A stretch of 64,000 nucleotides of DNA from Streptomyces parvus (GTDB lineage Bacteria > Actinomycetota > Actinomycetes > Streptomycetales > Streptomycetaceae). The stretch lies in NCBI RefSeq assembly GCF_014648875.1, contig NZ_BMRY01000015.1, forward strand, positions 1 through 64,000. The letters run 5' to 3'. Below are positions 14,386-56,738 of the stretch, piece by piece. The position numbers were made by a program, and so were the translations under genes. The notes under the pieces are model-generated. The model saw only the letters and a list, made by a program, of their open reading frames with translations. It was not told the DNA's origin and did no database searches. Numbering within the stretch: the first letter of the stretch is position 1; the number at the start of each line of letters is the position of its first letter.

Positions 14386-15573
14386 TCAGCGATAGGCGCG
14401 CTGCAGCGCGTGGCCGATCTCCGTCCTGAGCGGCTCGCGCAGCTCCGGCGGGTCCACCCGGTCGACCCGGATGTCCGTGCAGCCCACCCAGGCCGCCGCC
14501 TCCACCAGCGCCTCGGCCATCGGGGCCACCGCCTTCGGGCCGGCCGGCGACGCCTGCTTGGCCACGAGCGTGGTGCCCTCGCGCGCCGGGTCGACCCGGC
14601 CCTGGAGCTTCCCGCCCGCCAGCAACGGCATCGCGAAATAGCCGTGGATCCGCTTCTGCTTGGGCACATAGGCCTCCAGCCGATGCGTGAAGCCGAAGAT
14701 CCGCTCCGTGCGCGCCCGCTCCCAGATCAGGGAGTCGAACGGTGACAACAGCGTCGTACGGTGGCGGCCGCGCACCTCCTTGGCCAGGGCCTCCGGATCC
14801 GCCCAGGCGGGCTTCCCCCAGCCCTCCACCACGACCGGGACCAGTCCCGAGTCCGCCACCACGGCGTCGAACTCCTCGCCCTTCAGCCGGTGGTAGTCCG
14901 CGATGTCGCCACGGGTGCCGACGCCCAGGGACCTGCCCGCCAGCGCGACCAGCCGCCGCCGGCACTCGGCGTCGCTCAACTCGTCATGCAGCAGGGCATC
15001 CGGAATGGCCCGCTCGGCCAGGTCGTAGACCCGCTTCCAGCCGCGCCGCTCGGTGCACACCACCTCGCCGTACATCAGGGCCCGCTCGACGGCGACCTTG
15101 GACGCCGACCAGTCCCACCACTCGCCGCCGTTCTTCGCGCCGCCCAGCTCGGTGGCCGTCAGCGGGCCCTCGTCGCGCAGCTGCTTGATCACGGTGTCGT
15201 ACACCCCGTCGGGCAGATCGTGGTGCCAGTGCGGGCGGGAGCGGTAGGCGCGCCGGCGGAACGCGAAGTGCGGCCACTCCTCGACGGGCAGGATGCACGC
15301 GGCGTGCGACCAGTACTCGAAGGTGCGGCCGCCCGACCAGTAGGCCTCCTCCACCGTCCGGCGGCCCACCGAACCGAGGCGGGCGTAGGGGATCAGCTCG
15401 TGCGAGCGGGCCAGCACCGAGATCGTGTCCAGCTGCACCGCGCCGAGGTGGCGCAGTACCCCCGGCACCCCCGCCCGACGGTCCGGAGCCCCCAGGAAGC
15501 CCTGGGCGCGCAGGGCTATGCGGCGGGCCTGGTCGGCGGAGAGTTCGACTGCGGGAGGAGGCACAGGCGTCAT
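14386..15573 (-). CDS. YcaQ-family winged-helix DNA glycosylase (crosslink repair)
   Basis: A 395-residue protein of the winged-helix HTH_42 family that includes E. coli YcaQ/AlkX, a glycosylase that unhooks interstrand DNA crosslinks and other bulky N-alkyl adducts. Conserved stretches include LSADQARRIALRAQGF at the N-terminus, LGAVQLDTISVLARSH, and the family QxQ/QxD-type region AVQLD. The ATG at 15573 has no Shine-Dalgarno but lies just downstream of a near-consensus PafBC-type promoter (15581-15603), which predicts a leaderless mRNA and supports both this start and DNA-damage regulation. It converges with the response regulator gene (26-base gap). Confidence 0.88.
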   Translation of the reverse strand: MTPVPPPAVELSADQARRIALRAQGFLGAPDRRAGVPGVLRHLGAVQLDTISVLARSHELIPYARLGSVGRRTVEEAYWSGGRTFEYWSHAACILPVEEWPHFAFRRRAYRSRPHWHHDLPDGVYDTVIKQLRDEGPLTATELGGAKNGGEWWDWSASKVAVERALMYGEVVCTERRGWKRVYDLAERAIPDALLHDELSDAECRRRLVALAGRSLGVGTRGDIADYHRLKGEEFDAVVADSGLVPVVVEGWGKPAWADPEALAKEVRGRHRTTLLSPFDSLIWERARTERIFGFTHRLEAYVPKQKRIHGYFAMPLLAGGKLQGRVDPAREGTTLVAKQASPAGPKAVAPMAEALVEAAAWVGCTDIRVDRVDPPELREPLRTEIGHALQRAYR

Positions 15574-15580
15574 ACGTCGA

Positions 15581-15603
15581 ACCCTAGACGCCGCCACTGA
15601 CAG
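15581..15603 (-). promoter_or_regulatory. PafBC-type (RecA-NDp-like) DNA-damage promoter for the YcaQ gene
   Basis: Read on the minus strand, CTGTCAGTG (15603-15595), eight bases, then TAGGGT (15586-15581). This matches the LexA-independent DNA-damage promoter of actinobacteria, tTGTCRgtg-N8-TAnnnT, at every constrained position except the weak first T. Seven bases separate the -10 from the ATG, so the transcript should begin at or next to the start codon. The element sits at the very end of the upstream GNAT gene. Confidence 0.75.
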
Positions 15604-16180
15604 CCCGGCCCCGCCCGGGGACGTACGGGTGGGTGCCCGCGAGCCCGAGGTCGGACGGGAGCAGGGCCGCCGTCCAGGCGTCACGCCGCACGCCCTTGTT
15701 GAGCAGCCCGGACCGCTGTTCGCCCTCCAGCCGGAACCCCGCCCGCAGGGCGACGGCCCGTGAGGCCAGATTGCCGATCTCGGCCCGCCACTCCAGCCGG
15801 TCCGCCCCGAGCGAGGCGAAGGCCCAGCGGGCGGAGCCGAGCACCGCCTCGGTGGCGTAGCCGTTGCCGCGGTGCTCCTTGGTGGACCAGTAGCCCACCT
15901 CGTACGTCCCCGGACGGCTGCGGCGGTCGATGCCGAGCGCCCCGACGAGGGTCCCGTTCCCCCGCAGGGTCAAAGCAAAGCCGTAGGCGGAGTCGTCCTG
16001 CCAGCCCGCCGGGGCGAGCTTCGTGGTGAACAGTTCCGCGTCGGTGAGGCGGTACGGGGAGGGGATCACCGTCCACCGCTGGATGTCCGGGTCCTGACAG
16101 GCGGCGTGCACCCGGTGGGTGTCCTGCGGGCCGAAGGGCCGCAGGACCAGGCGTTCCGTGGTGAGGGTGATCGGCTCCAT
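15584..16180 (-). CDS. GNAT-family N-acetyltransferase (RimJ/RimL-like)
   Basis: A 198-residue GCN5-related acetyltransferase of the RimJ/RimL type: [16 protein letters not shown] at the N-terminus, [20 protein letters not shown] forming the acetyl-CoA-binding beta4/alpha3 signature, and [17 protein letters not shown] for motif B. The substrate cannot be told. The ATG at 16180 begins the conserved [11 protein letters not shown]; an in-frame extension of 19 residues upstream is unlikely. Its stop lies 11 bases from the start of the YcaQ gene, which nevertheless seems to have its own promoter. Confidence 0.9.
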
Positions 16181-56266: not shown

Positions 56267-56738
56267 CGCCGTCAGCGGTCCCTTCTGCGCGGGGTGCCCG
56301 GCCGGGGAAACGCCCTGTGATTCCCCCCACCCGGCACGGACACGTCGTCCGTACAGGTCGTCACGGACCGTGGAACTCCGAGCCCACAGATCCGTGCTGG
56401 AGGCATCCTCGCACCTGCCACTGACAACACGCCCGGCGGTCACCTTTAAATGATCTTGAATGGTCGGCTGTGGGCGCAAAAGTGCCTGCTTGCGTCCGGA
56501 TCCCGTCGCTCGGGGTGGTTTCCCGGGAGTTGTCCGCCGCACACCGGGTGGAAACCCGCACCGGATCACCGAACGTCTGACCGGCCTGTGATCAGCTGTC
56601 CGGCAACCTTCCGCCGGGTCTCCGCGTCTTCCCTCGAAACGCGAGCCCCCGGTGCCCCGTTCGGCGGCATTACAGTGGGCCGGAACATTCGGGCGGGCCG
56701 GGGGGACCGCAAGCCACGATCAGCAGGGAGCGCATGAC
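56267..56738. other. 472-base divergent region, FHA/ATPase gene / pkaA
   Basis: No gene is supported. It contains the PafBC-like element at 56405-56427 (minus) directing the FHA/ATPase gene, an AT-rich island around 56441-56462 (ctttaaatgatcttgaat), and a -10-like TACAGT at 56671-56676 that could serve pkaA, although I find no good -35 for it. Confidence 0.4.
56405..56427 (-). promoter_or_regulatory. PafBC-like promoter element upstream of the FHA/ATPase gene
   Basis: Read on the minus strand, TTGTCAGTG (56427-56419), eight bases, then GAGGAT (56410-56405). The upstream half is a perfect match to the actinobacterial LexA-independent DNA-damage motif (tTGTCRgtg-N8-TAnnnT); the -10 differs at its first base (G for T). 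It would start transcription about 130 bases before the ATG at 56266. Confidence 0.5.

What the first reader, a model, noticed from the sequence alone, without database searches (positions are those of the whole stretch)
15581..15603. PafBC-type DNA-damage promoter drives a leaderless YcaQ-family glycosylase gene
Seen: CTGTCAGTG-N8-TAGGGT on the minus strand, with exactly seven bases from the -10 to the ATG at 15573 and no Shine-Dalgarno. Known: tTGTCRgtg-N8-TAnnnT is the LexA/RecA-independent damage promoter of mycobacteria and Streptomyces, activated by PafBC. YcaQ enzymes unhook DNA crosslinks. Inferred: this repair gene is induced by DNA damage outside the SOS regulon, from a leaderless mRNA whose promoter lies in the end of a GNAT gene.
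Basis: partly seen in the sequence, partly recalled or inferred. Interest (0 to 1): 0.75.

Follow-up and report, generated by a model that had tools for sequence, protein, structure and literature searches.

The report
Damage-response promoter of crosslink-repair glycosylase gene
In a Streptomyces genome, the gene for a member of an enzyme family that cuts crosslinked bases out of DNA starts right at a promoter of the kind that the regulator PafBC switches on after DNA damage in related bacteria, and this arrangement is kept in every Streptomyces locus examined and in many other related genomes.

Summary
It is not chance. The element (TGTCRG-N10-[T/C]AnnnT, start codon 5-9 bases on) precedes the gene in 100 of 100 Streptomyces loci and 49 of 125 other Actinomycetes genomes examined, and in none at 16 other spacings or with five scrambled cores. 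The genome has 45 strict RecA-NDp sites against 0 for the reversed pattern; 23 of them put a start codon 6 or 7 bases after the -10, including recA, uvrB and the orthologue of UV-induced SCO6735. pafB and pafC are present. Best reading: a new member of the known RecA-NDp/PafBC damage regulon, expressed as a leaderless mRNA. PafBC dependence, induction and the start site are inferred, not shown; independence from LexA is open. A 2022 paper reported the PafBC motif as not conserved in S. venezuelae; 12 of 12 sampled (unnamed) Streptomyces genomes are rich in it.

The parts
15595..15603 (-). Upstream element CTGTCAGTG of the RecA-NDp/PafBC-type promoter (corresponds to the '-26 motif' bound by PafB in the mycobacterial complex)
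   Evidence: Read directly. TGTC[AG]G at the same spacing from the -10 in 100 of 100 Streptomyces loci
15587..15594 (-). Eight-base spacer GCGGCGTC between the element and the -10
   Evidence: core-to--10 spacing is the same in 100 of 100 Streptomyces loci, 0 at 16 other spacings
15581..15586 (-). -10 element TAGGGT; its TAG is also the stop codon of the GNAT gene
   Evidence: TAnnnT in 100 of 100 Streptomyces loci; the GNAT stop coincides with the -10 in 12 of 92 loci and lies upstream of the motif in the other 80
15574..15580 (-). Seven bases between -10 and start codon; predicted transcription start is the A of the ATG (15573)
   Evidence: Spacing read from sequence; ATGAC lies 6, 7 or 8 bases after the -10 in 10, 67 and 15 of 92 loci. 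The start site itself is inferred
14386..15573 (-). YcaQ-like (YQL) DNA glycosylase gene, 395 aa, QLD motif at residues 47-49
   Evidence: PF06224 AlkZ-like, 220.2 bits against a cut-off of 25.9; QLD; one match in the genome at E <= 1e-10
15584..16180 (-). Upstream GNAT acetyltransferase gene, same strand
   Evidence: PF13302 and PF00583; found upstream on the same strand in 92 of 92 Streptomyces loci
15533..15548 (-). LexA-like sequence TCGAACTCTCCGCCGA inside the gene, one mismatch to the published S. venezuelae SOS box; significance uncertain
   Evidence: (7 of 500 shuffles of the region do as well)

Best explanation
The element is a RecA-NDp/PafBC-class promoter. Proposed mechanism: single-stranded DNA produced by damage activates the PafB-PafC heterodimer, which binds TGTCAGTG and adapts the housekeeping sigma factor (HrdB in Streptomyces, recalled) to a promoter that has a -10 but no usual -35. 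RNA polymerase starts at the A of the ATG, and the leaderless mRNA is translated without a Shine-Dalgarno sequence to give the YQL glycosylase, which removes N7-alkylguanine lesions and unhooks interstrand crosslinks. Shown here: sequence, spacing, conservation, enrichment in the genome, association with repair genes, presence of pafBC. Taken from papers: the PafBC mechanism (mycobacteria) and the enzyme activity (other YQL proteins). Inferred: PafBC dependence, induction, start site and leaderless translation at this gene.
For: Exact motif and 7-base spacing. TGTCRG-N10-[TC]AnnnT followed by a start codon at 5-9 bases in 100 of 100 Streptomyces loci and 49 of 125 other Actinomycetes genomes; 0 at each of 16 other spacings and 0 for 5 scrambled cores. 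With a matrix that excludes this gene, 67 of 125 non-Streptomyces upstreams exceed the 95% control level, and all 67 have a start codon 6-9 bases after the -10. 45 sites against 0 in the own genome; 559 against 9 over 12 Streptomyces. Pfam of 30 of the 44 other downstream ORFs shows, among others, RecA, UvrB, ExoVII, Ogt, an ExoIII-like nuclease, RarA, RecD2, UDG and a second sliding clamp. The SCO6735 orthologue (PDB chain 5e3b, E 2.4e-82) has the same leaderless arrangement; SCO6735 carries a RecA-NDp promoter and is UV-induced 5-fold in S. coelicolor (PMC5087735, passages). Adjacent pafB and pafC: WYL and WCX domains in both, HTH_PafC in PafC.
Against: No expression data for this gene. PMC9380542 states that an initial search found the M. 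smegmatis PafBC motif not conserved in S. venezuelae (passages). 58 of 125 non-Streptomyces orthologues show no motif above the 95% control level; in several of these the gene follows an upstream gene closely (by eye). A PafB match occurs in 73 of 76 genomes tested, so presence of PafBC did not discriminate between genomes with and without the motif. 16 of the 80 named Streptomyces loci lack the strict GTG part of the element. The start codon is not forced by upstream stops: only 15 of 92 loci have no other in-frame start upstream before a stop, so the ATG rests on conserved position and spacing. Several own-genome sites precede genes with no evident repair role.
Confidence: 0.85

Rival explanations
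1. Dual control: the PafBC-type promoter is real, but LexA also represses the gene through an operator inside the start of the reading frame, so it is an SOS gene as well.
For: TCGAACTCTCCGCCGA at 15548-15533 has one mismatch to the published SOS box; 7 of 500 shuffles of the region do as well. The scan is insensitive: at recA of this genome, a gene whose operator LexA binds in S. venezuelae (PMC9380542), the best match has 3 mismatches, so a missing box says little. The review PMC8223512 says some mycobacterial genes, recA among them, are under both systems (passages). Several PafBC-type sites of the f3 family overlap TTCGAA palindromes (by eye).
Against: The site is not at a conserved place across the genus: the best match has one mismatch in 35 of 92 loci (27 of them at +25, in codons of a conserved peptide) and 2 or more mismatches in 57 of 92. 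At the homologous codons, 41 loci could be read: 27 with one mismatch, 13 with two, 1 with three; 51 could not be placed. The mismatch is the G of the second half-site.
Confidence: 0.2
2. A different WYL-type or other activator, not PafBC, recognises TGTCRG in Streptomyces; the promoter class is damage-responsive but PafBC is not its regulator.
For: No call here shows PafBC tested in Streptomyces, and PMC9380542 leaves it open (passages). The genome holds 8 WYL-domain matches.
Against: The element matches the RecA-NDp motif, which a review reports to resemble closely the PafBC binding consensus (PMC8223512, passages). PafB and PafC lie side by side, with a PafA-like ORF on one side and TatA/TatC-like ORFs on the other (by reading the translations). 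The same promoter layout is found in 15 of 15 chosen class genomes outside the genus.
Confidence: 0.1
3. Chance match, or conservation that only reflects the GNAT coding sequence or recent common descent.
For: In this genome the motif overlaps the last codons and the stop of the GNAT gene. The loose pattern is not significant in 64 kb. 80 of the 100 Streptomyces loci are nearest relatives.
Against: In 80 of 92 Streptomyces loci the GNAT stop lies upstream of the motif. Conservation is low upstream of the element. The 19 genus draws not chosen by similarity all carry it. It recurs in other families of the class, where listed orthologues are 36-67% identical, and only at one spacing.
Confidence: 0.01

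Closest known systems
RecA-NDp promoter class (M. tuberculosis; S. rimosus and S. coelicolor recA; SCO6735)
   Same: Same element and element-to--10 spacing as the consensus quoted in the finding. The SCO6735 orthologue and recA in this genome have the same layout with a start codon 6 or 7 bases after the -10.
   Different: The gene driven is a YQL glycosylase; I saw it named as a member in none of the papers and searches used here. The founding papers (Ahel 2002, Gamulin 2004) were not read.
Mycobacterial PafBC regulon, including the lhr-nei2 operon (psoralen crosslink repair, PMC11323726, passages)
   Same: Damage-induced, LexA/RecA-independent regulon that already holds an enzyme acting in crosslink repair.
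   Different: Nei2 is an unrelated enzyme (recalled). PafBC control is reported there and only predicted here.
YQL subfamily of HTH_42/AlkZ-like glycosylases (PMC9040887)
   Same: QLD catalytic motif, single match in the genome, GNAT and response-regulator neighbours.
   Different: In the section and passages seen that paper gives no promoter and calls the YQL pathway unknown.

Membership tests
RecA-NDp / PafBC-type promoter | tTGTCRgtg-N8-TAnnnT | tested here: met
   All capital positions match and GTG is present; the first base is C instead of lower-case t. The consensus is the one given in the finding.
RecA-NDp / PafBC-type promoter | Conserved at orthologous genes with fixed spacing | tested here: met
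   100 of 100 Streptomyces loci, 49 of 125 other class genomes, 0 at 16 other spacings
RecA-NDp / PafBC-type promoter | Genome encodes PafB and PafC | tested here: met
   Adjacent WYL proteins; HTH_PafC at 108.5 bits against a cut-off of 32
RecA-NDp / PafBC-type promoter | Damage-induced, PafBC-dependent transcription | not testable with these tools
   Needs RNA from damaged cultures and a pafBC mutant
RecA-NDp / PafBC-type promoter | Independent of LexA/RecA | tested here: inconclusive
   No SOS-like box at a conserved place across the genus; a one-mismatch site inside the gene in this genome; the scan found only a 3-mismatch site at recA, so it is insensitive
Leaderless mRNA gene | Transcription starts at or within a few bases of the start codon | tested here: inconclusive
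   ATGAC 6-8 bases after the -10 in 92 of 92 loci; no start-site data for this gene; other in-frame starts exist upstream in 77 of 92 loci
YQL glycosylase | AlkZ-like (HTH_42) domain with a Q-aliphatic-D motif | tested here: met
   PF06224 over the cut-off; QLD at residues 47-49; motif rule from PMC9040887
YQL glycosylase | Conserved neighbourhood: GNAT, two-component regulator, ComF | tested here: met
   GNAT and response regulator are present; the ComF-like ORF reaches only Pribosyltran at 5.5e-05, below the cut-off
YQL glycosylase | Excises N7-alkylguanine and unhooks crosslinks | not testable with these tools
   Shown for two other actinobacterial YQL proteins in PMC9040887 (passages)

The most novel reading that the evidence does not exclude
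The PafBC response of Streptomyces and much of the class Actinomycetes is largely a leaderless-mRNA response: its promoters are placed so that transcription would start at the start codon (ATG or GTG 6-8 bases after the -10 at 315 of 559 strict sites in 12 Streptomyces genomes and 193 of 308 in 15 chosen other class genomes). The YQL crosslink glycosylase is an ancient member of it. Damage signalling would thus be tied to a mode of translation that needs no Shine-Dalgarno pairing.
Probability: 0.4. Interest if true: 0.75.

Novelty: new member of a known kind. Interest (0 to 1): 0.6.

Why it matters
PMC9380542 (passages) leaves open whether Streptomyces has a RecA/LexA-independent damage response and reports no conserved PafBC motif in S. 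venezuelae; the dense, conserved sites found here make that question directly testable. PMC9040887 (passages) calls the pathway of the YQL glycosylases unknown; the promoter places the gene in a likely damage regulon beside recA and uvrB. Streptomyces make and meet DNA-alkylating compounds, so inducible crosslink unhooking would be a sensible defence (inference).

Tried and rejected
Chance and GNAT-coding explanations were tested and rejected. Presence or absence of PafB as a discriminator was tried and was uninformative: 73 of 76 chosen genomes have a match. An SOS box conserved at one place was sought and not found, but the scan missed a good box at recA (best 3 mismatches), so it is weak evidence and the site in this genome is left open; for that reason the dual-control rival stands at 0.2. 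An upstream in-frame stop was sought as proof of the start codon and does not give it: only 15 of 92 loci lack another upstream start, and 17 of 92 have a stop within 45 bases. NCBIfam gave no family for the protein. Only one PDB sequence matched it (9zd6, 'Cytoplasmic protein'); no structure was predicted. A first Pfam scan of part of the ComF-like ORF gave nothing and a second, of the whole ORF, only a weak phosphoribosyltransferase match.

Sampling limits. The 125 non-Streptomyces upstreams are 124 of the 129 class genomes outside the genus with a match, plus G260. Five (G301, G312, G314, G351, G353) were left out because their coordinates were not listed. One copy per genome was counted; of 7 second copies scanned apart, 1 had the motif. 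For the leaderless fraction, 15 of the 23 non-Streptomyces class genomes were searched; the eight left out had 2 to 7 sites each. Of the 44 own-genome sites other than this one, the downstream ORF was scanned with Pfam for 30. The column counts come from loci selected with the pattern TGTC[AG]-N11-TAnnnT (all 92 match it), so those columns are invariant by construction; the G after TGTC[AG] and the ATGAC position were not imposed.

Full report
What is there. On the minus strand the window reads CTGTCAGTG (15603-15595), eight bases, TAGGGT (15586-15581), seven bases, ATG at 15573. This matches the RecA-NDp consensus quoted in the finding. The TAG of the -10 is also the stop codon of the upstream GNAT gene. 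The reading frame that begins at 15573 (395 aa) is an AlkZ-like glycosylase (PF06224, 220.2 bits against a cut-off of 25.9) with the motif QLD. By the rule of PMC9040887 (QPhiD = YQL; section 5 read) it belongs to the YcaQ-like subfamily, and its neighbours include the GNAT and two-component genes reported there. secA lies beyond the GNAT gene on the other strand. A ComF-like ORF could be recognised only weakly.

More than chance in the genome. The loose pattern is not unusual in 64 kb (4 matches, 2.28 expected). In the whole 8.0 Mb genome the strict pattern TGTCRGTG-N8-TANNNT occurs 45 times against 0 for the reversed pattern. In a draw of 296 genomes of the phylum, the 12 Streptomyces genomes (own included) hold 559 matches against 9 for the control. 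Of the other 23 genomes of the class most are enriched, but a few are not (G008, G230 and G280 have 2 or 3 matches). Most of the phylum beyond the class is near the control level, with exceptions such as G007, G048, G059 and G109. Of the 45 own sites, 23 have an ATG or GTG that opens at least 60 codons exactly 6 or 7 bases after the -10, where about 0.9 per position would be expected. With the wider rule of ATG or GTG at 6-8 bases, 315 of 559 Streptomyces sites and 193 of 308 sites in 15 chosen class genomes are of this kind.

The genes at these sites. Downstream ORFs of 30 of the 44 other sites were scanned with Pfam. RecA, UvrB, exonuclease VII, O6-methylguanine methyltransferase, an ExoIII-type nuclease, RarA/MgsA, RecD2, a PD-(D/E)XK nuclease and a DEAD helicase begin 6-9 bases after the -10; uracil-DNA glycosylase (33 bases) and a second sliding clamp (50 bases) begin further on. 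Other sites precede genes with no clear repair role, for example ABC transporter, protein kinase, PrsW protease and AAA ATPase genes, and some lie at no evident gene start. One site precedes the orthologue of SCO6735 by 6 bases (PDB chain 5e3b, E 2.4e-82; 5E3B is SCO6735 by PMC5087735). That gene is published as carrying a RecA-NDp promoter and as induced 5-fold by UV in S. coelicolor (PMC5087735, passages). It serves as a positive control for the promoter class in this genus.

Conservation at the YQL gene. All 92 Streptomyces loci first examined (80 named nearest relatives, 11 genus draws, the window) have TGTC[AG] followed 11 bases later by TAnnnT, and ATGAC 6 (10 loci), 7 (67) or 8 (15) bases after the -10. 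64 of the 80 named loci match the strict pattern; of the other 16, 12 have TGTCAGACC or TGTCAGTCC in place of TGTCAGTGN. Upstream of the element, columns carry 0.03-1.0 bits; the spacer columns carry 0.6-1.9 bits, so part of the spacer is conserved too (81 dereplicated loci). With eight further genus draws the count is 100 of 100 for TGTCRG-N10-[TC]AnnnT plus a start codon 5-9 bases on, against 0 of 100 at each of 16 other spacings and 0 for five scrambled cores. The same test finds 49 of 125 in other genomes of the class, again 0 at every other spacing. A weight matrix trained on 25 own-genome sites without this gene puts 67 of the 125 above the 95% level of 1500 control scans (63 above the 99% level), and all 67 have a start codon 6-9 bases after the -10, against 19 of the 58 below the level. 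By family the share varies: f79 18 of 19, f8 9 of 10, f77 14 of 19, f78 5 of 9, f7 7 of 16, f3 5 of 16, and none of 4 in f75, of 3 in f76 and of 3 in f89. So the promoter looks old in the class but is absent from several lineages.

Not a by-product of the GNAT gene. The GNAT gene lies upstream on the same strand in 92 of 92 Streptomyces loci. Its stop codon lies before the element in 80 and coincides with the -10 in 12, this genome included. Protein conservation therefore cannot explain the element. The start codon is not forced by upstream stops (only 15 of 92 loci lack another in-frame start upstream); it rests on the conserved ATGAC and spacing.

The regulator. The genome has two adjacent WYL proteins, PafB-like and PafC-like. 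Both have WYL and WCX domains and the second has the HTH_PafC domain at 108.5 bits. Around them, by reading the translations, are a PafA-like ORF and two FKBP-like ORFs on one side and TatA/TatC-like ORFs on the other. In mycobacteria, PafB contacts the -26 motif, PafC contacts domain 4 of SigA, and single-stranded DNA activates the pair (PMC11804915, passages). Because 73 of 76 chosen genomes have a PafB match, co-occurrence did not help.

LexA. No SOS-like box sits at a conserved place across the genus. The best match has one mismatch in 35 of 92 loci, 27 of them at +25 in codons of a conserved peptide, and two or more in 57 (homologous codons readable in 41 loci). In this genome the +25 site has one mismatch, a score reached by 7 of 500 shuffles. 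The scan is not sensitive: at uvrB it finds a perfect box, at recA only a 3-mismatch site. Independence from SOS is therefore open.

What is known and what is new. The promoter class, its presence in Streptomyces, PafBC and the YQL enzymes are all known. In the searches made (PafBC + Streptomyces, YcaQ + glycosylase, RecA-NDp, leaderless + Streptomyces start sites, PafBC + glycosylase, a five-term search on Streptomyces, mitomycin and RecA-independent damage, PafBC + leaderless, HTH_42 + Streptomyces + DNA damage) I saw no listing or passage linking YQL genes to this promoter or describing PafBC promoters as leaderless; most listed papers were seen only as listings. Gamulin 2004, Ahel 2002 and Muller 2018 were not read and are known here only from citations. 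PMC12027616 names ycaQ among repair functions in its discussion of stressed M. smegmatis and does not mention PafBC (passage). [quoted passage not shown] PMC4681348 reports 264 mRNAs with leaders under 10 bases in S. coelicolor, so leaderless mRNA is ordinary in the genus (passages). PMC9380542 says the PafBC motif seems not conserved in S. venezuelae (passages); the enrichment in 12 of 12 sampled Streptomyces genomes argues against generalising that to the genus, though S. venezuelae itself could not be identified among them.

Verdict. The gene is a new, widely conserved member of a known regulon type. PafBC dependence, induction, start site and SOS independence remain to be measured.

Noticed in passing
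window 56405-56427, minus strand: TTGTCAGTG-N8-GAGGAT, a one-mismatch relative of the same element (18.3 bits), with no start codon 6-8 bases on.
   Followed up: partly
G038, G071 and G290 (family f3), sites listed: Several PafBC-type sites overlap TTCGAA palindromes around the -10 and start codon, as if PafBC activation and LexA repression were built into one leaderless promoter.
   Followed up: no
G093 and G143, sites listed: Identical copies of one leaderless PafBC-type site occur several times in a genome (four copies of TGTCGGTGGGTGTTCGTAGGTT in G093; three of TGTCGGTGGCCTGCGATAGTTT in G143), which suggests a repeated or mobile gene carrying a damage promoter.
   Followed up: no
L008 and L009 (own genome, contig C2, about 749.6-751.7 kb): An O6-methylguanine methyltransferase gene and uvrB lie about 2 kb apart and are transcribed divergently, each from its own leaderless PafBC-type site.
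   Followed up: partly
L004 (1530-3020) and L038 (1635-3011, minus strand): Two leaderless PafBC-type genes encode proteins with SWIM zinc-finger matches (1.5e-05, and 0.0015 which is below the cut-off) and no other clear family; possible uncharacterised damage-response proteins.
   Followed up: no
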